From Cristatella mucedo (Eukaryota > Bryozoa > Phylactolaemata > Cristatellidae): DNA of 64,000 bases. The notes under the pieces were generated by a model. That model searched no databases. It worked only from the letters and a program-made list of their open reading frames with translations, and was not told where the DNA came from. Made by a program: the position numbers and the translations under genes. The stretch is from contig WPIO01000136.1 of NCBI GenBank assembly GCA_009760855.2, positions 1 through 64,000 of the forward strand. The letters run 5' to 3'. Each line of letters begins with the position of its first letter. Positions within the stretch are counted from its first letter, which is position 1. This document shows, one piece after another, positions 1,990 to 52,975 of the stretch.

Positions 1990-2110
1990 CGTCTTTGTAT
2001 AGCACCATAAGAGAACGTAATCTCTATTCAGGCGCTTCACAAATGCCACGGGGCTCAAGCCCACGATGGCCTAGGTCAGACCTTGCTTAGGTCATGCTTG
2101 AGCAATAATT
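1990..2110 (-). mobile_element. Diverged tRNA-derived SINE fragment
   Basis: This matches the SINE found in every unit of the 30-44 kb array: a 'tagcacc...agagaacgtaatc' tail, then 'aggcgcttcaca', then a 'ggggctcaagccc' B-box-like palindrome. The tRNA-related head past the B box is degraded. It shows that the SINE exists outside the array. Confidence 0.6.
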
Positions 2111-26398: not shown

Positions 26399-26554
26399 TA
26401 TAGTTAGCTCTGCTCATAAGCGACACCGCCTAGGCGGTGTTGCTCATAAGCGACACCGCCTAGGCGGTGTTGCTCATAAGCGACACCGCCTAGGCGGTGT
26501 TGCTCATAAGCGACACCGCCTAGGCGGTGTTGCTTATGAGCAGAGCTAACTATA
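26399..26554. mobile_element. MITE-like palindromic element with 4 x 30-bp internal array
   Basis: Perfect 23-bp terminal inverted repeats lie at 26,399-26,421 and 26,532-26,554 (TATAGTTAGCTCTGCTCATAAGC-type ends). TA at both ends could be a TA target duplication, as in Tc1/mariner-derived MITEs. Between them are four identical 30-bp units (26,411-26,530), each holding the 18-bp perfect palindrome ACACCGCCTAGGCGGTGT. Zero divergence implies recent expansion. Confidence 0.8.
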
Positions 26555-26995: not shown

Positions 26996-28610
26996 CTCCA
27001 AATGCACCACCGTGTGCATATTGTCGGACATGGCATGCGAATGAACAGAGACTCTCGAAATAAAGGTTTCTAATACAGTATCAAAGGTAAAATCCGCATT
27101 CAGGTAGAAGAAGCGACCTGTGAGGTAATAGTTACGGCTTTTGTACGTGTCATGTATTACGTATAAATGATACCTATTTCAGAGCCAAAGTGCTCCGAAT
27201 AATGGAAATACTAATAAAGCAGGAGCTGAAAGTAAAACTAAACGTTAAGGATGGTCGTATTTTTTAGAGTTGGGTCATAATTGAACAAGCATTTAAACAC
27301 TATCCTTCATAACTAAATATCTTCCTTTTGGAGCAATATAGAAAAATGACTCAGCGTAGTCACATGACATTCGCCAAGACTTTCTGTAGAGATTGGAGGA
27401 GCTTTGAATATTATATGGGGTCTACAAGTGTGACTTTAGTTTAACCAAACAATTAAATGATGCAGCCAGCCCAATTAACTGGCAATTCGTTCGCTACAAT
27501 GGATCATGTTCAGACAGGGGTTATTGGTTGTTCTTGAGCAAGACCCAGTCTTTGTGAGTAAGCACGCCTTGCATTTTCGTGCTGAAAGATAGAGACAGTT
27601 GGAAATACCAAGTATTCATGGCTTTTCGGCAGGAGACGGTTAGCTCTGAAGATGATAATTCAAATCAAGCATTCTTCTGAATATGCGCAACGCATTTGAG
27701 CTTAAAAATAAAGTGTCGATTCAGGAAATAATTTTTTCTTTGCGTCAAATTCATGTTTATCTAATGCTCTAAATCAGTAGAGGATGGACTTTTCTTAAGG
27801 ATTTATCTTCACGAGAAATAGAAATGCTGAGCTGCTGCTTCATCGGCTAAATCCTTATTTGGGCTAATTTATTTAGCCTTATTTGGGCTTCTGGCGAGGT
27901 TCCATAAGGTGGCTAATCTAACGAAAAGAAATCACCCGGAGCAGCTCTTGCCTTATGCACCCGTACTGGCAGAGCAAACTCAGGTTTCGTGTACGTATGG
28001 CCTAATAGGAAAATGCCGATCTGCCACCAACGTGAGGCATTGTATCAACCTTGATGCAACAAGTTAATTTCGTTTGTAAATTCAATCCGCCCCATGATCT
28101 TATGTGATATATGGGTGAATAGCACCGAGCGTAGCCTTCAAAGGCAGAAGCACAACTGACTGACTGGTATATCAATTGTGTGCTATGACGTAACTGGTTT
28201 CCAACCGTTAGATTTATGGACTGCCATTTAGCAAGCCGATTTTTCTGTGGTAGAGCACGTAGAATTCGGTTCAGTTCGCTCAATTGAATTCGATATATTT
28301 TTTACATAAGTGCCTAACATCACGAACACATCACTCCTGGGCAAGAGCGTAGCCAGGATTAAGCAACAGATGTACTAGTGACTTGAAGTGGAGATAGACA
28401 GCTAATCTTAAGCATTCTTAATCAAGTTGTAAATCGCAATATATAAGACATGCACCTTAATTTTTAATAATCGAGCTTTGATTGGTTGGTTACTCAATTT
28501 TCGAAAATGCACGCTTCAGTAATTTTTTAATTAAATTATTTTCGTCGAAGACCGTCTGACCTAGGTCGCAATAGTATGCATATCAGATACGTACAATTCC
28601 GAGAAACAAT
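26996..28610. other. No gene recognised
   Basis: No supported feature on either strand. Confidence 0.4.
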
Positions 28611-29060
28611 ACTCTAGCTATCCCGGTCCTGTACAATACCTCGCGTTCGTTTTCGTTCAGGCTGGGCAAGCCAGCTGTCCAGCATAGTGAGAGCGGATGA
28701 TGGCTGGCACCACAGCTGTAGCTGGATAGATGTCTGCAGTCCTAACGAAGCAGACTGTACTATCCGGAGCTGTCTCTCAGGATTACTGGAGAGGGCGGAG
28801 CTAAGCCGTCAGCAGGTCAGCACCTCCCTCCCTATACTCTAGCTACCTCGGTTCTTTAAATACCTCATGTTCGTTTGCGTTCAGGCTGGGCAAGCCAGCT
28901 GTCCAGCATAGTGAGAGCGGATGATGGCTGGCACCACAGCTGTAGCTGGATAGGTGTCTGCAGTCCTAACGAAGCAGGCTGTACTGTCCGGAGCTATCTC
29001 TCAGCAGCACTGGAGAGGGCGGAGCTAAGCCGTCCGCAGGTCAGCAAGTTAGCACCTCTC
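28611..29060. repeat. Two-copy tandem duplication, period about 224
   Basis: Copy 1 starts at 'actctagcta' (28,611) and copy 2 at the same motif (28,836). The shared core 'ggctgggcaagccagctgtc' lies at 28,660 and 28,884. The copies differ at few positions. GC-richer than the surroundings. No recognised function. Confidence 0.9.
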
Positions 29061-30164
29061 TAGGAAAGCCTAGGCTGTATGGACTAGCTAAGGTCTATAA
29101 ATGGTAGTTCACGGTGTGCAGCCGCAAACAATTGGCGATCGGCTTCCTGCGACAAATTAAATTGAGAATCAATTCAACTTATTAAAGCTTTCTTCATTTC
29201 AACATAGGTGGACTGCCCTGCAATTACAGTGTAAGGTAATCCAAGACAGGTGGAGCTCGATGTCTCTGAGGTCTTGAGCTCTTGGTAGCAAAGGCCAAGC
29301 TGCCTGAAGAGCTGGATTCGATAGCTAGCATGACCAGCAACAGCTCCAAGCACGGGCCATTGTCGGACTTGGAAATGCAATAGAGGTTTTCTGTTGGCGG
29401 CAGAGACGAGACATTTCGTGGCATCATACACCGTAGCTAGTTTTTCGGAAAGGCTATGTTTTCAAAACACAAATTTATAATTAAAGATTTATTTGCACAG
29501 TAAGCATTTCGGTCACCAGGATGGCAACCACGTCTGTCAGCGAGTAACCGTCCGAGACAATCAATGAATTCCATGTACTATATGTCATCGAAGACCGACA
29601 TACGATCATAGTGACTTTCCCAGGAAATAGCACTAAAATTGAGCTTGCCTGCAACACACTACTGCGTCATAAATAGTTGAGTGTTGTGCCGGTAATCCTT
29701 GATAGTAGTGCAGCTTCCGTGTGCCGCCAGTCAAGAGCTGACGCAGTTGCAGCGAGCGCCGAATTTTCTCACCTGAACACAAGGCCTAAAACTGCAATAG
29801 AACTCTTTGTCAGGAAAGTACACTTACACGTGCCAGCTTCAGTCCTAACATTCATCATTCGCAAGCTTGAGATGCAAAGGCCTGAGCTCGGGCCTGAGCC
29901 AGGCAAGCCGTAGCCTTCACCTTAGCTTCACCGAACACACAGCAGTCGATTCGCATATTCGATCAGGCCCCAAGTGGCAGCTACAGCCAAGCAAATAACA
30001 TCAACGCATGACAATCCGATTCATTTAGCCAACGTCACGTACTCAGCAAGTTACCGTAAAAAAGTTTATCTAGGCTCGCACACCCGTCATGCTTACAAAC
30101 TTGGTGAAATTGACACAACACACTGGATGCGAAGATCCTTAACAGCATTGAAAACGTACTAAAG
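29061..30164. other. No gene recognised
   Basis: The minus-strand frame at 29,174-29,431 (85 codons) has no splice context and matches no family known to me. Confidence 0.35.
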
Positions 30165-33100
30165 AAGTGGGATTTCCCAAACGAGAAATCTTTCTGGTTA
30201 TCATTACTGACCAGCCACGATGCTACTACTAATTAATATAGTTCATGTTTGGTTAATAACTATTGTCTTCTATTAAAGCATGTAGCCGCAACCTTAACTT
30301 AGCTTCGAAACCTGAGTTAGCTGCAACTCCTCCCTACATGCAAATGTAGTCGGGGTCAGCTTGGATGAAGACAACTATTTGAAAAGATAAACAGCAAATG
30401 ACGACCTGCTTTACAAGCTGTTTTCCTACGGCGACCGAGTAGTCCATGGTATATTCTTATCAGCTGACCGTGGTCGAGCAGTATGAAGGACTAATACGTC
30501 GGACTGGAATGCCGATCTTTCCATGGAACATCAGAGCCGAATAGCAACACCGTGGAAAAGTCAAATAAATAAAAGTGTAGGATAGAACCTTGTCCTCACT
30601 GCATACATTCTGCAATGCAGACAGACAATTCTCCAAGCAGAGCTAAGCTGGTCAAGGGAGTCGGACGACGGCGATAAGGAAATGCATCGGGCACATATTG
30701 CCAGTTAAAGCAGATACCGATTAGCAGCCGGGATAAAGCTACCGCTGACGGTGCCCGTGACGATTGGCAGTGGATCGATCGGAATGCGGTTCGAACTTCC
30801 GATAAGAAAATGCTCGAACCGTTTCTGGAGAATTAATAACCAGCCTGGATAAGAAAATATAATTCAAAATATAATTAATTTGTATAGCGCCCCAAGAGAA
30901 CTTAATCTCTATTCACGAGCTTCACATATGCCTCCGGGCTCGAGCCCACGATCTCAGACAGTCCGTGGTCGGGAGGGGCTAGCACCTTAACCGCTGGACC
31001 AAACCAGCTCGGATAAAGCTTCAAACGACCGTGCCGGCAGCGATCGGCGGTAGGTGGATCGGAATGCGGTTCAAACTTATGATCGACAAATACTCCAACA
31101 ATTGCTGGAGAACCGGCGAATCACGTGCTGCTACCGCTTCGATACTATCTGCTGTCGAGTGGGCCCCAGGCCGACTTAGGACGTGTGATTTCCACGATGC
31201 GAAATCTTTAAGGTTATCGTTATTGACATGCCACAGCACTAATACCAATTAATATAATGTATTTCCGTCTGTAACTCTACAAAGTCATAAAGACCATGTG
31301 GGTGTTACGCAGAAGAGTGGTGTATAGACCACTAGCAGCCAAAGCGGCTTTCGGTACGCATTCGGTAGCCGACAGGCTTCGTCTCACGCAACAAAGAGAA
31401 AGTGGAAAGCGTGGCAAAGTCAGGAGAGCAGTTGAGGTAGTGAGTATTGTGGAAGTAGCAGCTCAGGACAGCTGAAAATGTTGAGCCATAGTCGTCGTCA
31501 GTAGGAGAGTCTTATTCCTATTCGGGTAACTGTCATTGTCTTACTATTATAGTTCGCAGCACCAACCCTGACATAGCTTCAGAACCTGACTTAGCTGCAC
31601 CTCCTCCCTGAATGCAAATGCGGTCGGGGTCAGCTTGGGTAAAGTTAATGATTTGAAGAGATCAACACCAAATCACAATATTCTTTACAAGCTGTTTTCT
31701 TGTAGCGACTGAGTAGCTGTAGGTAGAACTTTATCAGCTGCACGGGCAAGCAACGATGGGTAGTTGCAGCTCACGTAGGAACGCTGATTCGTTCAAACAG
31801 CATTTTCTAGCAGTTGTAAGAATCGTTTGTAAACGCAAACGATGAGATTACCCAGTTCTAAAGCAGCTAGATACCGATATCGTCATCACCGCTAGCAATT
31901 GACAGTGCACCCGTCACCAGGCATATCACAAGTTAATTGCGACTGGCATGAATACAAAAGCCATTTCCAGCACGATTCAAGCAAGTAGCTGAAACGCCAG
32001 TGCACGAAAAGATGAGAACGAGCAGTATAAAGAACTAATACGTCGGACTGGAATGCCGAGCTTTCCATGGAACATCAGAGCCAAATAGCAACACCTTGGA
32101 AATGTCAAATAAATAAAAGTGTAGGATAGAACCTTGTCCTCACTTCCCACATTCTGAAATGCAGACAGACAATTCTCCATGCAGAGCTAAGCTGGACAAG
32201 GGAGTCGGACGACGGCGATAAGGAAATGCATCGAGCACATTTTGCCAGTGAAAGCAGATACCGATCAGCAGCCGGCATAAAGCTACCGTTGACAGTGCCC
32301 GTGGCGATTGGCATGGATCGATCGGAATGCGGTTCTAACTTTCAATCGTAAAAACGCTTGAACCGTTTCTGGAGCACTGATCACCAGCCTGGATAAGAAA
32401 ATATAATTCAAAATTTACCTCGTTTGCATAGCGTCCCTAAAGAAATTAATCTCTATTCACGAGCTTCACATATGCCTCCGGGCTTCAGCCCACGATCTCA
32501 GCCAGACCATGGTCGAGGGGGCAAGCACCTCCACCGTTGGACCAATCCAGCTCGGATAAAGTTTCAAACGATTATGCCGGCAGCGATCGGCGGTAGGTCG
32601 ATCGGAATGTGGTTCAAACTTAAGATCGACAAATACTCCAACACTTGCTGGAGAACCAGCGAGTCACGTGCTGCTACCGCTTCGATATTGTCTGCTGCCG
32701 AGTGGGCTGCAGGCCGACTTAGGACGGGGGATTTCCACGATGCGAAATCTTTAAGGTTATCATTATTGACATGCCACAGCACTAATACCAATTAATGTAA
32801 TGTATTTCCGTCTGTAACTCTACAAAGTCATAAACACCATGTGGGTGTTACTCAGGAGAGTGGGGTATAGAGCATTAGCAGCCAAAGAGGCTTTTGGTAC
32901 GCATTCGGCAGCCGACAGGCTTCGTCTCACGCAACAAAAAGAAAGTGGGAAGCATAGCACAGTCAGGAGAGCAGTCGAGGTAGTGAGTATATCGGAAGTA
33001 GCCGCTCAGGACAGCTGAAAAGGTTGCGCCATAGTCGGCAGTAGGAGAGTCTAATTCCTATTCGAGTAACGGGTATTGTCTTACTATTATAGCTGGCAGC

Positions 33101-34584
33101 ACCAACCCTTACTTAGCTTCAGAACCTGACTTAGCTGCACCTCCTCTCTGAATGCAAATGCGGTCGGGGTCAGCTTGGGTAAAGTTAATGATTTGAAGAG
33201 ATCAACACCAAATCACAATATTCTTTACAAGCTGTTTTCTTGTAGCGACTGAGTAGCTGTAGGTAGAACTTTATCAGCTGTACGGGCAAGCAACGATGGG
33301 TAGTTGCAGCTCAAGTAGGAACGCTGATTCGTTCAAACAGCATTTGCTAGCAGTAGTAAGAATCGTTTGTAAACGCGAACGATGAGATTACCCATTTCTA
33401 AAGCAGCTAGTTACCGATATCTTCATCACCACTAGCAATAGACAGCACGCCCGTCACGAGGCTGATGACACGTAATTGCGATTGGCATGAATACAAAAGC
33501 CATATTATGCACGATTCAAGCAAGTAGCAGAAACGCCAGTGTACGAAATGATGGGAAGGAGCAGTATAGAGGACTAATACGTCGGACTGGAATGCCGAGC
33601 TTTCTATAAAACATCGGAGCCAAATAGCAACACCGTGGAAAAGTCAAATAAATAAAAGGTTAGGATAGAACCTTGTCCTCACTGCCTACATTCTTCAATG
33701 CAGACAGACATATGTCCAAGCAGAGCTAAGCTGGGCAAGTAAGTCGGACGACGGCTATAAGGAAATGCTTCGGGCACATATTGCTAGTGAAAGCAGATAC
33801 CGATCCGCAGCCCCGATAAAGCGACCGGTGACAGTGCCCGTGGCGATTGGCATGGATCGATCGGAATGCGGTTCGAACTTCCGATCGGAAAACGCTCGAA
33901 CCGTTTCTGGAGAACTGATCACCAGCCTGGATAACAAAATATAATTAAAAATATAATTCATTTGTATAGCGCCCCAACAGAACATAATCTCTATTCACGA
34001 GCTTCACGTATGCCTCCGGGCTGAAGCCCACGATCTCAGCCACACCGTGGTCGGGGGGGGTCAAGCACGTCAACATTTGGACCAAACAAGCTCGAATGAA
34101 GCTGCAAACGACCGTGCCGGCAGCGATCGGCGGTAGGTCGATCGGAATGTGGTTCAAACTTATGATCGACAAATACTCCAACAATTGCTGGAGAACCAGC
34201 GAATCACGCGCTGCTACCGCTTCGATACTATCTGCTGTCGAGTGGGCTTCAGGCCGACTAAATACGTGGGACTTCCACGATGCGAAATCTTTCAGGGTAT
34301 CGTTATTGACATGCCACAGCACTAATACCAATTAATGTAATATATTTCCGTCTGTAACTCTACAAAGTCATAAACACCATGTGGGTGTTACTTAGGAGAG
34401 TGGGGCATAGAGCAATTAGCAGCCCAAAGCGGCTTTCAGTACGCATTCGGTAGCCGACAGGCTTCGTCTCACGCAACAAAAAGAAAGTGGGAAGCCTAGC
34501 ACAGTCAGGAGAGCTATCGTGGTACAGAGTATATGTGGAAGTAGCAGCTCAGGACAGCTGAAAAGGTTGCGCCCATAGTCGGCA

Positions 34585-37500
34585 GTAGGAGAGTCTAATT
34601 CCTATTCGGGTAACGGGTATTATCCTACTATTATAGTTAGCTGCACCTACCCTGACTTAGCTTCAGAACCTGACTTAGCTGCACCTCCTCCCTGAATGCA
34701 AATGCGGTTGGGGTCAGCTTGGGTAAAGTTAATGATTTAAAGAGATCAACACCAAATCACAATATTCTTTACAAGCGGTTTTCTTGCGGCATCTGAGAAG
34801 CTGTAGGTAGAATTTTATCAGCTTCTAGGGCAGGCATCGATGGGTAGCCGCAGCGAACGTAGGAACGCTGATTCGTTCAAATAGCATTTGCTTGCAGTTG
34901 TCAGAATCGTGTGTGAACGCAAACGATGAGATTACCCAGTTCTAAAGCAGCCAGATACCGATATCTCCATCACAGCTAGCAATTGACAGTGCACACGTCA
35001 CGAGGCATATCACAAGTTAATTGCGACTGGCATGAATACAGAAGCCGTTTCCAGCACAATTCAAGCAAGTAGCAGAAACGCCAGTGCACGAAATGATGAG
35101 AACGAGCAGTATAAAGGACTAATACGTCGGACTGCAATGCCGAGCTTTCCTTGGAACATCAGAGCCAAATAGCAACACCTTGGAAAAGTCAAATAAATAA
35201 AAGTGTAGGATAGAAACTTGTCCTCACTGCCTACATTCTGCAATGCAGACAGACAATTCTCCATGCAGAGCTAAGCTGGACAAGGGAGTCGGACGAGGGC
35301 GATAAGGAAATGCATCGAGCACATATTGCCAGTGAAAGCAGATACCGATCAGAAGCCGGCATAAAGCTACCGGTGACAGTGCCCGTGGCGACTGGCATGG
35401 ATCGATCGGAATGCGGTTCAAACTTCCGATCGGAAAACGCTCGAACCGTTTCTGGAGAACGATCACCAGCCTCGATAACACAATATAATTAAAAATATAA
35501 TTCATTCGTATAGCGCCCCAAGAGAACATAATCTCTATTCACGAGCTTCACGTATGCCTCCGGGCTGAAGCCCACGATCTCAGCCTGACCGTGGTCGGGG
35601 GGGGGCGAGCACGTCAACCTTTGGACCAAACAAGCTCGAATGAAGCTGCAAACGACCGTGGCGGCAGCGACCGGCGGTAGGTCGATCGGAATGTGGTTCA
35701 AAGTTATGATCGACAAATACTCCAACAATTGCTGGAGAACCAGCGAGTCACGTGCTGCTAGCGCTTCGATACTATCTGCTGTCGAGTGGGCCCCAGGCCG
35801 ACTTAGGACGTGGGATTTCCACGCTGCGAAGTCTTTCAGGTTATCGTTATTGACATGCCACTGCACTAATAACAATTAATGTAATTTATTTCCGTCTGTA
35901 ACTCTACAAAGTCATAAAGACCATGTGGGCGTTACGCAGGAGAGTGGTGTATAGAGCACTAGCAGCCAAAGAGGCTTTCGGTACGCATTCGGTAGCCGAC
36001 AGGCTTCGTCTCACGCAACAAAAAGAAAGTGGGAAGCATAGCACAGTCAGGAGAGCAATCGAGGTAGTAAGTATATCGGAAGTAGCAGCTCAGGACAGCT
36101 GAAAAGGTGCCATAGTCGGCAGTAGGAGAGTCTAATTCCTATTCGGGTAACGGGGATTGTCTTACTATTATAGCTAGCAGCACCAACTCTGACTTAGCTT
36201 CAGAACCTGACTTAGCTGCACCTCCTCCCTGAATGCAAATGCGGTCGGGGTCAGCGTGGGTAAAGTTAATGATTTGAAGAGATCAACACCGAATCACAAT
36301 CTACTGTACAAGCTATTCTCTCGTGGCGACTGAGTAGCGGTAGGTAGAACTTTATCAGCGGCACGGGCAAGCATCGATGGGTAGTTGCAGCGAACGTAAG
36401 AACGCTGAATCGTTCAAATAGCATTTGCTTGCAGTTGTAAGAATCGTGTGTGAACGCGAACGATGAAATTACCCAGTTCTAAAGCAGCTAGTTACCGATA
36501 TCTTAATCACCGCTAGCAATTGACAGTGCACCCGTCACCAGGCAGATCAAACGTTAATTGCGACTGGCATGAATGCAAAAGCCATTTCCAGCACGAATCA
36601 AGCAAGTAGCAGAAACGCCACTGCACGAAATGATGGGAACGAGCAGTATAAAGGACTAATACGTCGGACGGGAATGCCGAGCTTTCCATGGAACATCGGA
36701 GCAAAATAGCAACACCATGGAAAAGTCAAATAAATAAAAGTGTTGGATAGAACCTTGTCCTCACCGCCTACATTCTTCAATGCAGACAGACAATTCTTAA
36801 GCAGAGCTAAGCTGGGTAAGGGAGTCGGACGAGGGCGATCAGGAAATGCATCGACCACATTTTGCCAGTGAAAGCAGATACCGATCAGCAGCCGGCATAA
36901 AGCTACCGGTGACAGTGCCCGTGACGATTGGCATGGATCGATCGGAATGCGGTTCTAACTTTCGATCGTAAAACGCTCAAACCGTTTCTGGAGAACTGAT
37001 CACCAACCTGGATAAGAAAATATAATTCAAAATATAATTCATTTGTATAGCGCCCCAAGAGAACTTAATCTCTATTACGGAGCTTCACATATGCCTCCGG
37101 GCTCGAGCCCACGATCTCAGCCAGACCGTGGTCGAGGGGGCTAGCACCTTAACCGCTGGACCAAACCAGGTCGGATAAAGCTTCAAACGACTATGCCGGC
37201 AGCGATCGGCGGTAGATCGATCGGATTGCGGTTTAAACTTATGATCGACAAAAACTCCAACAATTGCTGAAGAACCGGCGAATCACGTGCTGCTACCGCT
37301 TCGATACTATCTGCTTTCGATTGGGCTGCAGGCCGACTTAAGACGTGGGATTTCCACGATGCAAAATCTTTTAGGTTATCGTTATTAACATGCCACAGCA
37401 CTAATACAAATTAATGTAATATATTTCCGTCTGTAACTCTACAAAGTCATAAACACCATGTGGGTGTTACTTAGGAGAGTGGGGTATAGAGCATTAGCAG

Positions 37501-37660
37501 CCTAAGAGGCTTTTGGTACGCATTCGGTAGCCGACAGGCTTCGTCTCACGCAACAAAAAGAAAGTGGGAAGCATTGCACAGTATGGAGAGCTATCGTGGT
37601 AGTGAGTATATCGGAAGTAGCCGCTCAGGACAGCTGAAAAGGTTGAACCATAGTCGGCAG
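34585..37660. repeat. Higher-order block A (two satellite units)
   Basis: A dimer of two 1.54-kb units that is nearly identical to the next block at an offset of 3,076-3,079 bases. For example, the 306-base ORF at 35,224 recurs at 38,301 with identical translation. The identity is far above that between neighbouring single units. Ends are approximate. Confidence 0.85.
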
Positions 37661-40600
37661 TAGGAGAGTCTAATTCCTATTCGGGTAACGGGTATTATCC
37701 TACTATTATAGTTAGCTGCACCTACCCTGACTTAGCTTCAGAACCTGACTTAGCTGCACCTCCTCCCTGAATGCAAATGCGGTTGGGGTCAGCTTGGGTA
37801 AAGTTAATGATTTTTAAAGAGATCAACACCAAATCACAATATTCTTTACAAGCGGTTTTCTTGCGGCATCTGAGAAGCTGTAGGTAGAATTTTATCAGCT
37901 TCTAGGGCAGGCATCGATGGGTAGCCGTAGCGAACGTAGGAACGCTGATTCGTTCAAATAGCATTTGCTTGCAGTTGTCAGAATCGTGTGTGAACGCAAA
38001 CGATGAGATTACCCAGTTCTAAAGCAGCCAGATACCGATATCTCCATCACAGCTAGCAATTGACAGTGCACACGTCACGAGGCATATCACAAGTTAATTG
38101 CGACTGGCATGAATACAGAAGCCGTTTCCAGCACAATTCAAGCAAGTAGCAGAAACGCCAGTGCACGAAATGATGAGAACGAGCAGTATAAAGGACTAAT
38201 ACGTCGGACTGCAATGCCGAGCTTTCCTTGGAACATCAGAGCCAAATAGCAACACCTTGGAAAAGTCAAATAAATAAAAGTGTAGGATAGAAACTTGTCC
38301 TCACTGCCTACATTCTGCAATGCAGACAGACAATTCTCCATGCAGAGCTAAGCTGGACAAGGGAGTCGGACGAGGGCGATAAGGAAATGCATCGAGCACA
38401 TATTGCCAGTGAAAGCAGATACCGATCAGAAGCCGACATAAAGCTACCGGTGACAGTGCCCGTGGCGACTGGCATGGATCGATCGGAATGCGGTTCAAAC
38501 TTCCGATCGGAAAACGCTCGAACCGTTTCTGGAGAACGATCACCAGCCTCGATAACACAATATAATTAAAAATATAATTCATTCGTATAGCGCCCCAAGA
38601 GAACATAATCTCTATTCACGAGCTTCACGTATGCCTCCGGGCTGAAGCCCACGATCTCAGCCTGACCGTGGTCGGGGGGGGCGAGCACGTCAACCTTTGG
38701 ACCAAACAAGCTCGAATGAAGCTGCAAACGACCGTGGCGGCAGCGACCGGCGGTAGGTCGATCGGAATGTGGTTCAAACTTATGATCGACAAATACTCCA
38801 ACAATTGCTGGAGAACCAGCGAGTCACGTGCTGCTAGCGCTTCGATACTATCTGCTGTCGAGTGGGCCCCAGGCCGACTTAGGATGTGGGATTTCCACGC
38901 TGCGAAGTCTTTCAGGTTATCGTTATTGACATGCCACTGCACTAATAACAATTAATGTAATTTATTTCCGTCTGTAACTCTACAAAGTCATAAAGACCAT
39001 GTGGGCGTTACGCAGGAGAGTGGTGTATAGAGCACTAGCAGCCAAAGAGGCTTTCGGTACGCATTCGGTAGCCGACAGGCTTCGTCTCACGCAACAAAAA
39101 GAAAGTGGGAAGCATAGCACAGTCAGGAGAGCAATCGAGGTAGTAAGTATATCGGAAGTAGCAGCTCAGGACAGCTGAAAAGGTGCCATAGTCGGCAGTA
39201 GGAGAGTCTAATTCCTATTCGGGTAACGGGGATTGTCTTACTATTATAGCTAGCAGCACCAACTCTGACTTAGCTTCAGAACCTGACTTAGCTGCACCTC
39301 CTCCCTGAATGCAAATGCGGTCGGGGTCAGCGTGGGTAAAGTTAATGATTTGAAGAGATCAACACCGAATCACAATCTACTGTACAAGCTGTTCTCTCGT
39401 GGCGACTGAGAGTAGCGGTAGGTAGAACTTTATCAGCGGCACGGGCAAGCATCGATGGGTAGTTGCAGCGAACGTAAGAACGCTGAATCGTTCAAATAGC
39501 ATTTGCTTGCAGTTGTAAGAATCGTGTGTGAACGCGAACGATGAAATTACCCAGTTCTAAAGCAGCTAGTTACCGATATCTTAATCACCGCTAGCAATTG
39601 ACAGTGCACCCGTCACCAGGCAGATCAAACGTTAATTGCGACTGGCATGAATGCAAAAGCCATTTCCAGCACGAATCAAGCAAGTAGCAGAAACGCCAGT
39701 GCACGAAATGATGGGAACGAGCAGTATAAAGGACTAATACGTCGGACGGGAATGCCGAGCTTTCCATGGAACATCGGAGCAAAATAGCAACACCGTGGAA
39801 AAGTCAAATAAATAAAAGTGTTGGATAGAACCTTGTCCTCACCGCCTACATTCTTCAATGCAGACAGACAATTCTTAAGCAGAGCTAAGCTGGGTAAGGG
39901 AGTCGGACGAGGGCGATCAGGAAATGCATCGAGCACATTTTGCCAGTGAAAGCAGATACCGATCAGCAGCCGGCATAAAGCTACCGGTGACAGTGCCCGT
40001 GACGATTGGCATGGATCGATCGGAATGCGGTTCTAACTTTCGATCGTAAAACGCTCAAACCGTTTCTGGAGAACTGATCACCAGCCTGGATAAGAAAATA
40101 TAATTCAAAATATAATTCATTTGTATAGCGCCCCAAGAGAACTTAATCTCTATTACGGAGCTTCACATATGCCTCCGGGCTCGAGCCCACGATCTCAGCC
40201 AGACCGTGGTCGAGGGGGCTAGCACCTTAACCGCTGGACCAAACCAGGTCGGATAAAGCTTCAAACGACTATGCCGGCAGCGATCGGCGGTAGATCGATC
40301 GGATTGCGGTTTAAACTTATGATCGACAAAAACTCCAACAATTGCTGAAGAACCGGCGAGTCACGTGCTGCTACCGCTTCGATACTATCTGCTTTCGATT
40401 GGGCTGCAGGCCGACTTAAGACGTGGGATTTCCACGATGCAAAATCTTTTAGGTTATCGTTATTAACATGCCACAGCACTAATACCAATTAATGTAATAT
40501 ATTTCCGTCTGTAACTCTACAAAGTCATAAACACCATGTGGGTGTTACTTAGGAGAGTGGGGTATAGAGCATTAGCAGCCTAAGAGGCTTTTGGTACGCA

Positions 40601-40740
40601 TTCGGTAGCCGACAGGCTTCGTCTCACGCAACAAAAAGAAAGTGGGAAGCATAGCACAGTCAGGAGAGCTATCGTGGTAGTGAGTATATCGGAAGTAGCA
40701 GCTCAGGACAGCTGAAAAGGTAGCGCCATAGTCGGCAGTA
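37661..40740. repeat. Higher-order block B (copy of block A)
   Basis: Second copy of the two-unit block. It differs by a handful of substitutions and small indels, such as the extra 'ga' near 39,411. This is consistent with a recent unequal exchange. Confidence 0.85.
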
Positions 40741-43195
40741 GGAGAGTCTAATTCCTATTCGGGTAACGGGTATTGTCTTACTATTATAGCTGGCAGCACC
40801 ATCCCTGACTTAGCTTCAGAACCTGACTTAGCTGCACCTCCTCCCTGAATGCAAATGCGGTTGGGGTCAGCTTGGGTAAAGGTAATGATTTGAAGAGGTC
40901 AACACGAGATCACAATATTCTTTACAAGCTGTTTTCTTGTGGCGACTGAGTAGCTGTAGGTAGAACTTTATCAGCTGCACGGGCAAGCATCGATGGGTTG
41001 TTGCAGCGCACGTAGGAACGCTAATTCGTTCAAACAGCATTTGCTAGCAGTTGTGAGAATCGTGTTTAAACGCGAACGATGAGATTACCAAGTTCTAAAG
41101 CAGCTAGTTACCGATATCTTCATCGCAGCTAGCAATTGAATTCGCACCCGTGACCAGGCTGATTACACGTTAATTGCGAATGGCATGAATGCAAACGCCA
41201 TATTATGCACGATTCAAGCAAGTAGCAGAAATGCCAGTGCACGAAATGATGGGAACGAGCAGTATAAAAGACTAATACGTCGGAATGGAATGCCGAGCTT
41301 TCCATGGAACATCAGAGCCAAATAGCAACACCGTTAAAAAGTCAAATAAATAAAACGGTAGGATAGAACCTTGTCCTCACTGCCTACATTCTTCAATGCA
41401 GACAGACATATCTCCAAGCAGAGCTAACTGGGCAAGTAAGTCGGACAACGGCTATAAGGAAATGCTTCGGGCACATATTGCCAGTGAAAGCAGATACCGA
41501 TCAGCAGCCCCGATAAACCAACCGGTGACAGTGCCCGTGGCGATTGGCATGGATCGATCGGAATGCGGTTCGAACTTTCGATCGTACAACGCTCGAACCG
41601 TTTCTGGAGAACTGATCACCAGCCTGGATAAGAAAATATAATAAAAAATATAGTTCTTTTGTATAGCGCCCCAAGAGAACTTAATCTCTATTCAGGTGCT
41701 TCACATATGCCTCCGGGCTCGAGCCAACGATTTCAGCCGGACCGTGGTCAAGGGGGCTAGCACCTTACCTGCTGGACTAACCAGGTCGGATAAAGCTTCA
41801 AACGACCATGCCAGCAGCGATCGGCAGTAGGTCGATCGGAATGTGGTTCAAACTTATGATCGACAAATACTCACAAAATTGCCGGAGAACCAGTGAATCA
41901 CGTGCTGCTACGGCTTCGATACTATCTGCTGTCGCGTGGGCTGCAGGCCGACTTAAGACGTGGGATTTCCACGATGCGAAATCTTTCAGGTTATCGTTAT
42001 TGACATGCCACAGCACTAATACTAATTAATGTAATGTATTTCCGTCTGTAACTCTACAAAGTCATAAACACCATGTGGGACTTACGCAGAAGAGTGGTGT
42101 ATCGAGCACTAGCAGCCAAAGCGGCTTTCAGTACGCATTCGGTAGCCGACAGGCTTCGTCTCACGCAACAAAAAGAAAGTGGGAAGCATAGCACAGTCAG
42201 GAGATCAGTTGAGGTACTGAGTATTGTGGAAGTAGCAGCTCAGGACAGCTGAAAAGATTGAGCCATAGTCGGCAATAGGAGAGTCTAATTCCTATTCGGG
42301 TAACGGGGATTATCTTACTGATATAGCTAGCTGCACCTACCCTGACTTAGCTTCAGAACCTGACTTAGCTGCACCTCCTCCCTGAATGCAAATGCGGTCG
42401 GGGTCAGCATGGGTAAAGTTAATGATTTGAAGAGATCAACACCAAATCACAATATTCTTTACTAACTGTTTTCTTGTGGCGTCTGAGTAGCTGTAGGTAG
42501 AATTGTATCACCTGCTAGGGCAGGCATCGATGGGTAGCCGCAGCGAACGTAGGAACGCTGATTCGTTCAAATAGCATTTGCTTGCAGTTGTCAGAATCGT
42601 GTGTGAACGCAAACGATGAGATTACCCAGTTCTAAAGCAGCCAGATACCGATATCTCCATCACCGGTAGCAATTGACAGTGCACCAGTCACGGGGCATAT
42701 CACAAGTTAATTGCGACTAGCATGAATACAAAAGCCATTTCCAGCACAATTCAAGCAAGTAGCATAAACGCCAGTGCACGAAATGATGAGAACGAGAAGT
42801 ATAAATGACTAATACGTCGGACTGGAATGCCGAGCTTTCCATGGAACATCGGAGCAAAATAGCAACACCGTGGAAAAGTCAAATAAATAAAAGTGTTGGA
42901 TAGAACCTTGTCCTCACCGCCTACATTCTTCAATGCAGACAGACAATTCTTAAGCAGAGCTAAGCTGGGTAAGGGAGTCGGACGACGGTGATAAGGAAAT
43001 GCATCGAGCACATATTGCCAGTGAAAGCAGATACCGATCAGCAGCCGGCATAAAGCTACCGTTGACAGTGCCCGTGACGATTGGCATGGATCGATCGGAA
43101 TGCGGTTCGAACTTTCGATCGTAAAACGCTCGAACCGTTTCTGGAGAACTGATCACCAGCCTGGATAAGAAAATATAATTCCAAATATACTTCAT

Positions 43196-43330
43196 TTGTA
43201 TAGCGCCCCAAGAGAACTTAATCTCTATTCAGGAGCTTCACATATGCCTCCGGGCTCGAGCCCACAATCTCAGCCAGACCGTGGTCGAGGGGGCTAGCAC
43301 CTTAACCGCTGGACCAAACCAGGTCGGATA
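43196..43330 (-). mobile_element. tRNA-derived SINE inside each satellite unit (representative copy)
   Basis: On the minus strand: an A-box-like TGGTCCAGCGGTTAAGG, then a B-box-like GGGCTCGAGCCC, then a tail with 'gagattaagttctcttgg' and 'ggcgctata'. Equivalent copies lie near 30,878, 32,420, 33,962, 35,505, 37,045, 38,583, 40,123 and 41,660. The tail resembles the 3' end of the LINEs in this window, which would let LINE machinery mobilise it. Confidence 0.8.
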
Positions 43331-44435
43331 AAGCTTCAAACGACCATGCCGGCAGCGATCGGCGGTAGGTCGATCGGAATGTGGTTCAAACTTATGATCG
43401 ACAAATACTCCAACAATTGCTGGAGAACCAGCGAATCACGTGCCTCTACCGCTTCGATACTATCTGCTGTCGAGTGGGCTGCAGGCCGACTTAGGACGTG
43501 GGATTTCCACGCTGCGAAATCTTTCAGGTTATCGTTATTGACATGCCACAGCACTAATACCAATTAATGTAATGTATTTCCGTCTGTAACACTACAAAGT
43601 CATAAAGACCATGTGGGCGTTACGCAGGAGAGTGGTGTATAGAGCACTAGCAGCCAAAGCGGCTTTGAGTACGCATTCGGTAGCCGACAGGCTTCGTCTC
43701 ACGCAACAAAGAGAAAGTGGGAAGCATAGCACAGTCAGGAGATCAGTTGAGGTACTGAGTATTGTGGAAGTAGCAGCTCAGGACAGCTGAAAAGATTAAG
43801 CCATAGTCGGCAGTAGGAGAGTCTAATTCCTATTCGGGTAACGGGTATTATCTTACTATTATAGCTCGCAGCACTGACCCTTACTTAGCTTCAGAACCTG
43901 ACTTAGCTGCACCTCCTCCCTGAATGCAAATGCGGTTGGGGTCAGCTTGGGTAAAGTTAATGATTCGAAGAGATCAACACCAAATCAAAATCTACTTTAC
44001 AAGCTGTTTTCTCGTGGCGACTGAGTAGCTGTAGGTAGAACTTTATCAGCTGCACGGGCAAGCATCGATGGGTAGTTGCAGCGAACGTAGGAACGCTGAT
44101 TCGTTTAAATAGCATTTGCTTGCAGTTGTAAGAATGGTGTGTGAACTCTAACGATGATGTTACCCAGTTCTAAAGCAGCTAGTTACAGATATCTCCATCA
44201 CCGCTAGCAATTGACCGAGCACCCGTCACCAGGCAGATCACACAATAATTGCGACTCGCATGAATACAAAAGCCATTTCCAGCACGATTCAAGCAAGTAG
44301 CAGAAACGCCAGTGCACGAAATGATGGGAACGATCACTAGAAAGGACTAATACGTCGAACTGGAACGCCGGGCCTTCCCTGAAACGTCAGAGCCAAATAG
44401 AAATACTGCGGCAAATTCAATAAATAGACATGTAG

Positions 44436-44759
44436 TGTTTTGTGTGCCTGTTGCTTCCTGGTCAGTGGTGTGATGTGCCTGCTCTCGGTGGGTGGTTTGG
44501 CGGTTGGCTCGATGCTGCCTTTGATGTGGGCAATTGTTTATGTGGTTGGCTCGGTGCAGCCATTAATGTGGGCTTGTGGCCCCACAGTGGTGGCTCACCA
44601 CGGATGCACTCCCTTATCTGTGGTGAGTCAGCCCCTAGCTTATATATGTACCTGCTGGGGGAATAAAGGTGGAGTCTAGTTCACAGCTCACGGTCGCCTG
44701 CTCGTGTCTTCGTGAGACTCCACCAGTGCTGCTACAGCCGGAGACAGAGTGACATAACA
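44436..44759 (+). mobile_element. 5' LTR of a degenerate LTR retrotransposon
   Basis: Begins TGTT and ends AACA, about 324 bases. A TATA-like 'cttatatatgta' and an AATAAA at about 44,662 lie in the right order for U3-R. Inside the LTR a 30-base motif 'ggttggctcg-tgc-gcc' is repeated at 44,502 and 44,546. A primer-binding site follows directly. The left end is the last base of the satellite array. No matching 3' LTR was found in the window. Confidence 0.75.
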
Positions 44760-44761
44760 AT

Positions 44762-44779
44762 TGGTAGCAGAGAATGGTT
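44762..44779 (+). other. Primer-binding site of the LTR element
   Basis: TGGTAGCAGAGAATGG lies two bases after the LTR. It resembles the TGGTATCAGAGC-type sites complementary to an initiator-Met tRNA 3' end, seen in many LTR retrotransposons. Confidence 0.6.
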
Positions 44780-45134
44780 TACTCGAGCCGGAAAAGAGTA
44801 CCAGACCTTCTACGGGATAGATGGAGCGACTATACTGAAGTACGAAATGTTCAACGGCAGAACAGACCTTATGCCTTGGCTTCTAAAGTTGGAGAAGGCC
44901 GTAGCAAGGCTAAAGATTCCGATGCCGCTGAAACATGTTGTGCCAGTGTGTCTGGGCGATAAAGCCATACACGGTTGTGGTGGTCAGCCGGCCGAAGCTA
45001 AAGAAGATTACCAAAAGCTAAGAAATGAATCAATCCTGAGCTTCTCGTGCTTGACGGATGAGGAGGCCGAGCTTGAGGCCGAGAGGTTTCGGCTGGAGCA
45101 GGAGCAGCTCGCTATGGGACCGCTTTCGACATAG
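44780..45134 (+). pseudogene. Gag-like remnant of the LTR element
   Basis: The open frame contains YEMFNGRTDLMPWLLKLE, resembling the 'F(D/N)G ... W(L)xxFE' start of Ty3/Gypsy-type Gag capsid regions. It ends in TAG at 45,132. A shifted frame carries on for about 60 codons. No protease, reverse transcriptase or integrase was seen downstream, so the element is non-autonomous or truncated. Confidence 0.5.
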
Positions 45135-46140
45135 TAGCCACAACAGCCGAAGTGAGCCAGAACGATGTAAGTGCAAAGCAGCAACAGCCAGCGAATAAGG
45201 AGGTGCAGCATGCAACGTCTTCCGGCGGCGAGGTGGTAGTGGGCAGCGTCGAGGCGATAGTTGCCTGCGACAAGGCGCGGACGGCCCAAGCGAGCGACGT
45301 CTCGGCGGCATAGCACAGCAGTGAGAGCGTCGCGGCGGCAAAGCCTGCCCGAGAGAGCAACGTCTTGGCCGCAAAACTCAACGACGAGAGCTTCATCGAA
45401 GTGGAGAGCATCCGCACAAGCACCTTGGCCAGAGCGCTGAGGAGCACTGCGAGATTTCGGTCACCGGCGAGGCGGCAGTAGCCTGCGACCAGGCCCAGGC
45501 AGCCCACGAGAGCGACGTCTTGGCTTCGCGGCTGCGGCAGCAGGAGCCTCGCGGCAGCAGCGACGTGTATTTGTGAGACCGATGCCTTGGCTGCCAAGTG
45601 CAGCAGCGAGAGCGCACTAGCGGCGGAGAGCATCTCAGCTGCGGCAGATGTCTTGGGAACTTAAGGAACGGTAAGGAAATGAGGAAATGATGTTCGAACC
45701 GACCGCCTGTAGCACACACGGGCGGAACATCCGGAGCTCCTATCTACCTCTCAGCTGGAACAGCAGGTGACTGAGTGCGAGGGAACACGACTCTTGCAAC
45801 CTGCGAGCACTGGGTGGACACCTTGCGATGGCTCAGACTGCCTAAGCAGCCTCAAGCTCACGACCGGCGGAAGGGCAGACGATGACTTGGCAGTCCTGCC
45901 CAAATCCATGCATTGGTGGCATCTGTGGGGACATCCAGCTACCGCAAACTGCTGCCAGCTGTCGAGCGGGTTTGGAACGAACGATGGCCCGACAGTGCGA
46001 AAAAAACAACGCATGCATGGAATAAAAGGGCCCCTGAAAGGATTCCTATAGGAATGAGAGGACAAGATTCCTCGCCGCCAGCAGCCGCCTAGTGTGTGTA
46101 GACTCGGCTTGGCCGGCATAGTTTTGAAATAAAGGTTTTG
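45135..46140 (+). mobile_element. GC-rich internal part of the LTR element, without pol
   Basis: Strikingly GC-richer than its flanks. Two diverged copies of a motif coding for V-A-C-D-x-A-x-x-A ... SDV lie at about 45,218-45,305 and 45,460-45,545, suggesting a repetitive Gag tail. Frames are broken. The right boundary of the element is unclear. AATAAA occurs at about 46,021 and 46,129. Confidence 0.4.
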
Positions 46141-46844
46141 GTGGTGAAATGCTCGGTCCTGCTACCCAGCCTGACGACAGGTCGTGCTGAAGGCTGTCAC
46201 ACTGCGAAAGAATACATGGAAAATCTTGCTAAGGAATGTAAAGTGAGGAGTATCAAACAGCTTCTAGTATGCGCCTATTGCGACTGCCCCACGCACCTAA
46301 TGATGGGAGCTCTCCTTCCATCTGATTGGACCCCTCCCACGGAGGGAAAGCGAAACTCAGTAAAAGAGGGCAGTTCAGCGTTCAACTGACCTGACCACTC
46401 TCGTGGAAGAAAGGGGTTCAGCAGCTGAAGCCTGCTAAGACATCGATCGCGGTAGAGTGAAGGCTCAGCACCAGCACGTGTTGAAGGCAAGTTCAGCACT
46501 AAGAGAAGTGGCTTCAGAACGGGCTGACAAGACAATGGGGAATAAAAAATAAAGTGACCGGGGAACACAGAGTCTGTAACAAGCCGAGACAGCAATGCAT
46601 CAAGGCACAATAGTAGTCACACGAGACACCTTTCATAGAATCCGTTGGCAGGCTGGTTTTGTACCGCTGAAAGGGATCACCTAATGATTCAAGTGACAAG
46701 GAGCAAAAAATAATCATTAATACTCGTCCTTGACCACGAGTCGTCATTGCGCCCTGAGCACTCGCTCACCAAAAGCAAATCTCATAACTATCATGGCTCA
46801 GTCACCACTGCGACGTTGTGGAAAAAAACACGAGCGTATCGGTC
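46141..46844. other. No gene recognised
   Basis: No supported feature. Confidence 0.4.
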
Positions 46845-46940
46845 CTATAATGTAATGAAACGTATCTCCGTCTGTAACTCCACAAAGCCATAACGACTAT
46901 GAGGGTGTTAGGCAGGAGCCAGTGCTAGGGCACTGAATAG
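46845..46940. repeat. Isolated fragment of the 1.54-kb satellite
   Basis: 'cgtatctccgtctgtaactc', 'cacaaagccataac', 'gggtgttaggcaggag' follow the order of the satellite landmark region. They are diverged and lie 2.4 kb beyond the array end, on the far side of the LTR element. Confidence 0.75.
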
Positions 46941-47104
46941 GCAAAGCTTGGATCATTGAATGCATGGCAACCGAGAAAAACCACAGTAATGAAATGGCAG
47001 TATTGCAAAGTAGAAATTAAACGTAAATTTAAAGTATTTCGGCTTCCTAACTAAGGTATAAGAGCTTAAGCTGCCATTGCTTCTACTAGATAGATTCAAC
47101 AATG

Positions 47105-47190
47105 TGGAGCTGCCTGCTGCGGGATTCGAGCCGGCGACCTGGATCGTGAAATGTCATCCCTTAACCCCCTAGGCTGTTACAGAGAGTAGG
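47105..47190 (-). other. tRNA-like sequence (SINE head or tRNA pseudogene)
   Basis: On the minus strand, A-box-like CCTAGGGGGTTAAGG and B-box-like GGCTCGAATCC sit at tRNA spacing. The T-arm pairs 4 of 5 bases. The acceptor stem does not close convincingly. Confidence 0.4.
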
Positions 47191-47592
47191 CAAAGACTCA
47201 TTAAAAAACTTAAATGGTTAGGTGTTCAATTCTCTAGAACACATGTGACCAAATTAGTCACCACACGGCAAAACAATATTATGTTGCTTACTTACCACAG
47301 GCTTGCATTTTGATAGTCTTTACTGCTGAGCAATTCATAAGAAGTTTGTGAGTCTAGGTCACTGGTCGACGTAAGTGTGCTGAAGGCTTCTTACCCTATA
47401 GTATCGAATCGTAGAGCACGAAGACGGGCTACTGCTGCGACTCATGCAGATTGACTCTGACAACTACGAGTGCTGGTTGGTGGTAATTACTGCATTGTCA
47501 GCTTGACTGACTTCACTAATGCTGGTCAAGTGCTAAAAAATAAATACTTATCCCAGAGTATTACGAAAGATTACACGAGCATCACGTCGTAG

Positions 47593-47769
47593 GGTCTTAA
47601 GAAGCCTAACTGTTATGCTATACAAGCCGTAGCACTCGACAGGTATGAGGCAATCTCTGCCCAGGAGTACTTCACAGAATGGCTGCAGTCAATTTCCTGG
47701 CAGGCTTCAAATGCTGGGCTTAAAGTGAAAAATCAATCGAGATGTCCGAAATATGTTGAACCTGAGTGA
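47593..47769 (+). CDS. Exon-like open frame, unrecognised
   Basis: 58 codons without an ATG start, protein-like in composition (LDRYEAISAQEYFTEWLQ, then WQASNAGLKVKNQ). It could be an exon or a retroelement Gag fragment. No flanking splice partner was established. Confidence 0.3.
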   Translation, partial: GLKKPNCYAIQAVALDRYEAISAQEYFTEWLQSISWQASNAGLKVKNQSRCPKYVEPE

Positions 47770-47849
47770 CTGAATACTTGGCCAAAAGAGAAGTAGCATA
47801 GCTGCTGATGGGGGCAATACCAAGACGCGGCTTCACTTACCGTGATAAC

Positions 47850-48034
47850 CTATCCAGCTCCACAGCTGCCAAGCCGTGCAGGTATCCAAACGAGATCCAT
47901 CGAGCCATCGAGCAGTGCCTGCTGCTCGATGGCCGTCGAGTCACAACCAAGGCCTGCGGTCGTCGTCAGTAGATCAATCGGGCATGACGAATGGCTCACT
48001 TCACAAGCCAGCTCCTCGCGAGAAGCCTGATCGA
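47850..48034 (-). CDS. Possible terminal exon, unrecognised gene
   Basis: Acceptor 'cttagattttcag' is followed by a 60-residue frame in phase 1 (DQASREELACEVSHSSCPID ... ARLGSCGAG) ending in TAG. Balanced amino-acid composition supports coding. The upstream exon is not resolved and no poly(A) signal was found close by. Confidence 0.35.
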
Positions 48035-50190: not shown

Positions 50191-50256
50191 TATGGCGATA
50201 GAAGAGCCTTTACGGCTCTCATGTATGGCGATAGAAGAGCCTTTACGGCTATCACC
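50191..50256. repeat. 33-base direct repeat, two copies
   Basis: 'tatggcgatagaagagcc' begins at 50,191 and 50,224. Each copy includes the inverted pair AGAGCC/GGCT(C/A)T around a short loop. Confidence 0.85.
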
Positions 50257-50280
50257 ACAGCTTGCAGTGGCTACAAAGGA

Positions 50281-50371
50281 TAGCCCACCACAGGATTCGA
50301 ACCCACGTCTTCGGGACCGATGTCGTAAAAAGCAACCGCCCTACCTGGTGTGCCATCGTGGCTCCTCACTC
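50281..50371 (-). other. tRNA-like sequence (SINE head or tRNA pseudogene)
   Basis: Minus strand: A box TGGCACACCAGGTAGGGCGG and a perfect B box GGTTCGAATCC, with a T-stem of five pairs including wobbles. The acceptor stem pairs only 3 of 7, so a working tRNA is unlikely. Confidence 0.45.
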
Positions 50372-51849: not shown

Positions 51850-52105
51850 TCTCCTCAAGTGAGATTGTCCCTCACGGAAGCTTAGAGACTTAACTGTGTC
51901 TGAAGTCACACCTCTCACAATTTCGGGGTCGAATGCTGCTTCTACAGCCATTTCTGTAACGTTAAAAGTCCAAATGGCAGTTGGTAAATCGCGATCTGTG
52001 TTGAGAGTCCTCCAATCGAAGAAAGGCAAGCAGTTTTCCAGTCTCGCGTCCCATTACTTTGCTGCAACACAAACTTTGAAAAGTTATAACGGGTTTCAGT
52101 TATAG
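51850..52105 (-). CDS. Probable coding segment, frame unresolved
   Basis: Good acceptor 'tttgtgttgcag' at 52,105. Downstream the most protein-like frame is FFDWRTLNTDRDLPTAIW ... EAAFDPEIVRGVTSDTVK, up to a possible donor CC|GTGAGG near 51,873. The frame entering from the acceptor is different (KVMGRETGKLLAFLRLED), so either an indel or another splice is needed. No family was recognised. Confidence 0.3.
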
Positions 52106-52162: not shown

Positions 52163-52975
52163 ATAATAATAATAATAGTAACAATAATAATCTACTTGAT
52201 AAAGCGCCCTCAGAGAACTTAATCTCTCTCTAGGCGCTTTACATTTGCTGCAACGGAAAATGCAATTAAATGATAATTAAAATCATGCTTGAAAAACAAA
52301 AAAATGAATAACATGGTTAGGGGGTGACATGCACAGGGTCAGCGTGCCAATGTGGTTAGTGGCAGCATGCACAGTGTCAGCACGCATAAGCACGTGAAGG
52401 ACGAATCACAGGGACCCACTAAATGCTGTCCTAAATAGGTGTGTTTTTAAGTTCCTTTTAAATGTGGTCAGGTCAGGGGATGTTCTGACGCAGGTCGGGA
52501 GGGAGTTCCAAGCTTTGGGAGCATACGAACTAAATGCACGGTCTCCAAAGGATTTGAGGTTTGTACGAGGTATTTCTAGACTGTTGGATTCCGAAAAGCG
52601 GGTGGTACGATGCTTGGCCTGATGGGGGAGTATGTCGGAGAGATAGGCTGGAGCCATAGAATGAAGGGACCTAAAAGTGAGCGACAAAACCTTGAAGTCA
52701 ATCCGTTGCTTGACTGGTAGCCAGTGCAGGTCGGCGAGAAGTGGAATAATGTGGCAACTGCGACGCTCACGACCGACAAGCCTAGCTGCCGAGTTTTGCA
52801 CCAGCTGCAATCGCCTGATCGCACATGCTGGTAGGCCAGTAAGCAGTGAGTTGCAGAAGTCGAGACGAGATGTCACGAATGCATGGACAAACTTAGACGT
52901 GGTATCCCTATCTAAACAAGCCCGAATTTTAGCAATATTATGAAGCTGAAAATAATAGTGTCCTTTGAGCACCTA
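52163..52975 (-). mobile_element. 5'-truncated LINE (CR1/L2-like) with the longest intact RT tail in the window
   Basis: A minus-strand frame from 52,972 to 52,406 encodes about 180 residues of the reverse-transcriptase C-terminal region: FVTSRLDFCNSLLTGLPAC, QNSAARLV, DLHWLPVKQRIDFKVLSLTF, AYLSDIL, SYAPKAWNSLP, FKRNLKTHLF. This block is typical of CR1/L2 clades. A 3' UTR of about 220 bases ends with 'gagagattaagttctctga', 'gggcgctttatcaag' and an (ATT)n tail at 52,163-52,195. The least degraded copy here, so probably the youngest. Confidence 0.93.

What the first reader, a model, noticed from the sequence alone, without database searches (positions are those of the whole stretch)
30165..44435. 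14-kb macrosatellite with a SINE captured in every 1.54-kb unit
Eight complete periods with spacing of 1,535-1,544 bases, no recognisable protein, and a tRNA-derived Pol III-type promoter in each unit. The SINE must have inserted before amplification. Such an array may be centromeric, heterochromatic, or a source of tandem Pol III transcripts.
Basis: partly seen in the sequence, partly recalled or inferred. Interest (0 to 1): 0.7.

Follow-up and report, generated by a model that had tools for sequence, protein, structure and literature searches.

The report
Nine-unit tandem repeat carrying two retrotransposons

Summary
The array is real: nine units of 1,537-1,545 bp, about 91% alike, run from a decayed edge copy at 30158 to 44435. 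The window starts contig C40 of a held 572-Mb assembly. A core probe finds four places (this array, a near-identical nine-unit array on C11, two older mini-arrays on C11) plus two short weak hits. The mini-arrays have an empty SINE site, and some of their units have empty LINE sites. So the order core, LINE, SINE, amplification is shown. Low copy number speaks against a centromeric or genome-wide satellite. The Pol III promoter is decayed: the B box is intact in 5 of 9 units, and the A-B region is among the more variable parts of the unit. The two 14-kb arrays, in flanks 96-99% identical, have reshuffled units and a recent two-unit duplication in one of them, as unequal exchange and conversion predict. 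It is a composite, TE-bearing macrosatellite, a known kind, with no evidence of function. Transcription and chromatin could not be tested.

The parts
30158..30470 (+). Decayed left-edge partial unit (unit 685-774 joined to 1023-1252): lacks the LINE insert, i.e. an empty-site relic of the older unit
30475..44435 (+). Tandem array of nine 1.54-kb units (unit starts at 30488, 32032, 33571, 35116, 36653, 38193, 39731, 41269, 42806; partial unit from 44344)
30867..31012 (-). SINE in unit 1 (A box TGGTCCAGCGG, B box GGCTCGAGCCC); further SINEs, about 145 bp each, at about 32411-32555, 33949-34095, 35493-35639, 37030-37173, 38570-38715, 40108-40251, 41646-41789, 43183-43327 (bounds estimated from the profile hits and the family bounds)
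31250..31510 (-). 5'-truncated LINE 3' end in unit 1 (unit position 763-1023; same offset in every unit), a dispersed family
30725..30832 (+). Internal sub-repeat X (unit about 238-345), first copy in unit 1; its partner X' (unit 516-624, about 31003-31111) lies on the other side of the SINE
   Evidence: 109 bp, 72.5% identity in the unit consensus
34573..40891 (+). Recent two-unit duplication: 34573-37813 against 37648-40891 in pieces of 98.6-100% identity, near-identical up to about 37550/40625 (estimated); units 4 and 6 are 99.7% identical
1993..2087 (-). Dispersed, diverged copy of the same SINE outside the array, same window
52163..52972 (-). LINE copy whose 3' end resembles the SINE tail (similar tails at 5374-5443, 20440-20503, 24302-24352 and 61492-61544; 22975-23038 also matches, but whether it is a LINE or a SINE tail is not settled)
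44435..45134 (+). LTR-retrotransposon-like remnant abutting the right edge: LTR-like stretch to about 44760, primer-site-like TGGTAGCAGAG, 155-aa ORF with no Pfam match (LTR and primer-site labels recalled, not from a call)
   Evidence: sequence
28604..30150 (+). Left flank, also present beside the C11 mini-arrays (96.1% over 1,317 bp to L009; 89.8% over 696 bp to L010), marking the array as part of a segmentally duplicated region

Best explanation
It is a low-copy, region-bound composite macrosatellite in a segmentally duplicated region, made in steps. (1) A non-coding core existed as a short tandem array (shown: mini-arrays on C11). (2) An internal segment X of about 110 bp was duplicated, and one unit received a 5'-truncated LINE copy (shown: neighbouring units without X' and without the LINE; the order of these two is not resolved). 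(3) A tRNA-derived SINE then inserted at the start of X' (shown: the site is empty on C11, with an approximate repeat TTATCC on the two sides of the insert). (4) That doubly marked unit was amplified to nine copies. (5) About 60 kb around it was duplicated, or exists as two haplotypes (C40 and C11). (6) The two arrays have since been reshuffled, with a fresh two-unit duplication in the window's copy. Unequal exchange and gene conversion between tandem copies is the inferred mechanism of steps 4 and 6. The SINE was probably mobilised by a LINE with a matching 3' end (inferred). Nothing indicates a selected function.
For: Array. SINE family: 40 of 3,256 first-look candidates scored, giving 40 matches, 12 in the two arrays and 28 elsewhere; 12 of the 28 fetched, sharing a 141-bp consensus and differing outside it. 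Empty SINE sites at L009:4734 and L010:4694. Empty LINE sites at L009:3871, L009:6013, L010:3921 and the window's left edge; filled LINE without SINE in the L009 middle unit. The LINE family varies in 5' end and has a short tandem 3' tail; of four copies tested, two encode a stretch 44-45% identical to the window LINE protein (E 3e-39 and 3e-38), one 36% (E 6e-8), one has no significant match. Core probe: four places plus two weak hits. Old units pair with 100/100 support and C40 and C11 units intermix. C40-C11 reshuffling: u1/v1 and u2/v2 99.7%, distal units mosaic, against flanks of 96.2-99.3%. Two-unit duplication only in C40: 99.7% against at most 96.9% between C11 units.
Against: The exchange mechanism is inferred from mosaicism, not observed. 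The target-site repeat is short (6-7 bp) and imperfect, more so in units 3, 4 and 6. Whether C40 and C11 are paralogues, haplotypes or partly an assembly effect is unresolved: collinearity stops at 59593, and the two C40 probes beyond it found no long second copy. If they are alleles that still exchange, intermixed units in the tree do not date the amplification. Function was not testable here. Copy counts depend on an assembly that may collapse arrays, and only one part of the core (unit 1058 to 365 of the next) was counted on its own.
Confidence: 0.9

Rival explanations
1. The array is a source of tandem Pol III transcripts, or a TFIIIC-bound boundary element, and is kept for that.
For: SINE A and B boxes 53-58 nt apart, a run of four or more T in the tail of all 18 units, and 5 of 9 (C40) and 4 of 9 (C11) units with an intact B box.
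Against: B box broken in 4 of 9 and 5 of 9 units. Diversity of the A-B stretch is 0.127 against a unit mean of 0.084, and only 7.3% of same-length windows are as variable. The same promoter exists in a large dispersed family, so the array is not special for it.
Confidence: 0.05
2. It is a local outpost of a centromeric or pericentromeric satellite.
For: Tandem, apparently non-coding, with a local two-unit duplication.
Against: The core probe matches only C40 and one 0.53-Mb stretch of C11, apart from two short weak hits. Units are about 91% alike, the array is short with a decayed edge, and its left flank is shared with the C11 mini-arrays.
Confidence: 0.03
3. The second array on C11 is an assembly duplicate: C40's first 60 kb and C11 are the two haplotypes of one locus, so the genome has one such array.
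For: Collinear over 59.6 kb, 96.2-99.3% outside the distal array, with the same array edges and nine units each.
Against: Collinearity ends at 59593, where C11 turns into a second copy of window 47210-48004; the probes C40:60500-63500 and C40:69000-72000 found no long second copy.
Confidence: 0.4
4. The unit is itself a mobile element (for example one with internal tandem repeats) that spread to C40 and C11.
For: Four loci with unit-core tandem copies.
Against: Left-flank sequence is shared by window, L009 and L010, the loci are few, three of the four lie within 0.53 Mb of one contig, and no coding match reached a cut-off. Segmental duplication explains it.
Confidence: 0.04

Closest known systems
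Human TE-bearing megasatellites (PMC2588610; passages seen)
   Different: Smaller unit (1.54 kb) and array (14 kb); different genome; pre-insertion units survive nearby
Composite repeats of ape X and Y chromosomes (PMC11168930; passages seen)
   Same: Tandem composite units catalogued apart from canonical repeat annotation
   Different: Other species; those were found by genome-wide annotation
DXZ4-type macrosatellites (PMC8662614; passages seen)
   Same: Single-locus, structurally fast-changing tandem array with a large unit
   Different: DXZ4 has CTCF motifs, CpG islands, transcripts and a described role in X inactivation; none was shown or tested here
tRNA-derived SINEs with a LINE-like 3' tail (general knowledge, recalled)
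   Same: tRNA-like head with A and B boxes, tail alike to LINE 3' ends in the same window
   Different: Family sequence not found in the held papers by one 19-base query; partner LINE not identified exactly

Membership tests
Macrosatellite / TE-bearing megasatellite | Large non-coding tandem unit (about 1 kb or more) in head-to-tail array | tested here: met
Macrosatellite / TE-bearing megasatellite | One or few loci, not genome-wide | tested here: met
   (subject to assembly collapse)
Macrosatellite / TE-bearing megasatellite | TE insertion common to all units | tested here: met
   SINE 9 of 9; LINE fragment 9 of 9
Macrosatellite / TE-bearing megasatellite | Copy number or structure varies between chromosomes | tested here: inconclusive
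   Structure differs between C40 and C11 arrays but both hold nine units; alleles or paralogues not resolved
tRNA-derived SINE | A and B boxes at tRNA-like spacing | tested here: met
   Both in 5 of 9 units or 4 of 9, and in the family consensus; box consensus recalled
tRNA-derived SINE | Dispersed copies with shared ends | tested here: met
   5' end: 11 of 12 fetched copies start at CCGAG, one 5 bases later; 3' end runs into a variable AT-rich tail; copies were chosen from the high-ranking ones
tRNA-derived SINE | Insertion with empty-site counterpart and target duplication | tested here: met
   Empty in L009 and L010; the target repeat is short and imperfect
Centromeric satellite | High copy number in long arrays | tested here: not met
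   (subject to assembly collapse)
Centromeric satellite | CENP-A chromatin | not testable with these tools
   no chromatin data
Pol III transcript array | Transcripts from the array | not testable with these tools
   no RNA data

The most novel reading that the evidence does not exclude
The SINE-bearing units act as a cluster of TFIIIC-binding sites that insulates this segmentally duplicated region; units with intact B boxes are retained in both arrays while array structure turns over.
Probability: 0.04. Interest if true: 0.55.

Novelty: new member of a known kind. Interest (0 to 1): 0.25.

Why it matters
It gives a readable step-by-step record of how a composite satellite is born: empty, half-filled and filled units coexist in one assembly, and two near-identical arrays show how units are reshuffled after a recent split. 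It does not change what is known about satellites.

Tried and rejected
Coding function: two Pfam calls on 20 ORFs (of 323 of 60 aa or more in the window), none above cut-off, several sub-threshold matches. Structured RNA: Rfam gathering on the window and E up to 1 on 3.2 kb of the array found none; ARAGORN found no tRNA. A genome-wide satellite: not supported. Array as tandem LTRs: considered because a retrotransposon-like remnant abuts the right edge; rejected because the C11 mini-arrays contain the core, and no match of L009 or L010 to window 44440-46800 was seen. Higher-order repeat of two units across the array: rejected, since one recent two-unit duplication accounts for it. Viral contigs: a 22-base SINE pattern gave 0 matches. 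A literature search with a 19-base SINE string gave 0 papers; some searches gave listings, and passages of three papers were seen. The organism was not identified. The A/B-box and diversity tables were wrong (fuzzy matching hit other places) and were replaced, where the A box of unit 8 is offset by one base because of a deletion; one search finds it.
Full report
What was claimed.

The array. Self-alignment shows one diagonal at about 1.54 kb from 30475 to 44426. Nine anchor copies are spaced 1535-1544 bases apart. The nine units are 1537-1545 bp long and 88.9-99.7% identical in pairs; mean identity is 90.8% for neighbours and 93.3% for next-but-one neighbours. The latter comes mainly from one recent event: 34573-37813 matches 37648-40891 in pieces of 98.6-100%, near-identical up to about 37550, and units 4 and 6 are 99.7% identical. 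Other stretches are mosaics: units 5 and 8 have no differences over one 100-column block and 5-14 over most others. The left edge (30158-30470) is a decayed partial unit. The right edge meets what looks like an LTR-retrotransposon remnant (label recalled).

What is in the unit. (a) A SINE on the minus strand in 9 of 9 units. Its family has 3,256 first-look candidates in the genome; 40 were scored and gave 40 matches, 12 in the two big arrays and 28 elsewhere. Twelve of those 28, high-ranking ones, were fetched. They are 96.5-100% identical to a 141-bp consensus made from themselves; 11 of 12 begin at CCGAG, one 5 bases later, and all run into a variable AT-rich tail. Three array copies compared are 95.0-95.7% identical to it. 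The SINE tail resembles LINE 3' ends at several places in the window (E from 4e-8 to 0.006 in a one-window search; the match at 22975-23038 may be another SINE). (b) A segment of about 260 bp (unit 763-1023) that is a dispersed family as well. Copies share their 3' end with a short tandem tail and are cut at different points at the 5' end. Of four copies tested against the window's LINE protein (52406-52972), two match at 44-45% (E 3e-39, 3e-38), one at 36% (E 6e-8) and one not significantly. (c) An internal repeat X/X' of about 109 bp, 72.5% identical, on the two sides of the SINE. (d) The rest has no coding or RNA-family match above threshold.

Where else it occurs. The window is C40:1-64000 of a 572-Mb assembly of 688 contigs. 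A core probe without SINE or LINE gave 28 candidates, all scored, with 33 matches: this array; a second array on C11:1794812-1808921; mini-arrays on C11:1345484-1348154 (L009) and C11:1875529-1876714 (L010); and two short weak hits on C188 and C125, not followed up. The window's left flank is also next to the mini-arrays (96.1% and 89.8%), with a clean join in the window after the shared sequence. Other window segments (11126-13116, 13741-14011, 15858-16144, 20766-21542) match the other side of the L009 mini-array. The region is therefore a set of low-copy segmental duplications.

Order of events. In L009 the middle unit has X and X', has the LINE, and lacks the SINE; its neighbours lack the LINE, and the first unit has a single X. 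L010 also has an empty SINE site; the LINE state of that unit is not seen because the match stops short. At the empty site the plus strand of L009 reads CAGCCTGGATAAAGCTGCC. In the array the SINE lies between CAGCCTGGATAAG and CGGATAAAGCTTC, a short imperfect target repeat that has decayed further in units 3, 4 and 6. The SINE therefore came after the LINE and before the amplification. Precise loss of a SINE is not expected, so the empty sites are read as ancestral (established knowledge of retroposons). In a tree of 18 core pieces, L009 and L010 form one fully supported pair, and units of the two big arrays intermix, which puts amplification before the C40-C11 split unless the two still exchange.

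After the split. C40 and C11 are collinear from window 1 to 59593: 96.2% over 1-17495, 98.9% over 17497-37948, 93.2% over 37992-45179 (the distal array, on the same-order diagonal) and 99.3% over 45274-59593. Units 1, 2 and 4 have a same-position partner at 99.5-99.7%; unit 6 matches C11 unit 4 at 99.6%; the others are mosaics or have diverged. The two-unit duplication of C40 has no counterpart on C11, where the most similar pair is 96.9%. Both arrays hold nine units, one on C11 being about 60 bp short. The C40 probes 60500-63500 and 69000-72000 found no long second copy (40 of 2,121 and 40 of 178 candidates scored), so the pair may be a segmental duplication, two haplotypes with a structural difference, or partly an assembly effect.

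Does it do anything? The B box is intact in 5 of 9 units here and in 4 of 9 on C11. The A box fits a loose, recalled consensus in 8 of 9 window units (in unit 8 it is found) and equals the family form in 4 of 9. The A-to-B stretch is more variable (0.127) than the unit average (0.084), and 7.3% of same-length windows are as variable. Selection for Pol III transcription is not visible, but transcription itself was not tested.

Comparison. Human megasatellites made of repeating patterns of TEs, thought to have grown by unequal crossing over, are described in PMC2588610 (passages). Composite repeats are described in PMC11168930 (passages), and DXZ4 in PMC8662614 (passages). The array is a new member of that kind. 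It is not a centromeric satellite by the copy-number test, with the caveat of assembly collapse.

Noticed in passing
14497-18231 (-): A 1,244-aa uninterrupted reading frame rich in alanine and threonine, no Pfam match; more frames on the same strand down to about 8000 and a 28-copy CTG run at 11066-11150 suggest one large gene. Pieces of this stretch match the far side of the L009 mini-array on C11.
   Followed up: partly
1-59593: Near-identical, inverted second copy on C11:1779766-1838756; collinearity stops just before a (CA)n run at 59656-59886, where C11 turns into a copy of window 47210-48004.
   Followed up: partly
28609-29046: A 224-bp segment present twice in tandem here (92%) while one stretch of the paralogous flank in L009 matches both copies, so L009 seems to hold one.
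   Followed up: no
SINE B box, array units 2, 3, 4, 6: The family hexamer CTCGAG has become CTGAAG in unit 2 and CTTCAG in units 3, 4 and 6: the two variants are reverse complements inside a GGG...CCC palindrome, as a small hairpin-templated inversion would give.
   Followed up: no
44435-45134: LTR-like stretch, primer-site-like motif and a 155-aa frame at the right edge of the array, in both C40 and C11 (labels recalled).
   Followed up: partly
26411-26541: A 30-bp unit repeated 4.4 times at 98%, palindromic in part by eye.
   Followed up: no
47101-47180 (-): A stretch with a B-box match (GGCTCGAATCC at 47132, no A-box match by the pattern used), possibly a second SINE family.
   Followed up: no
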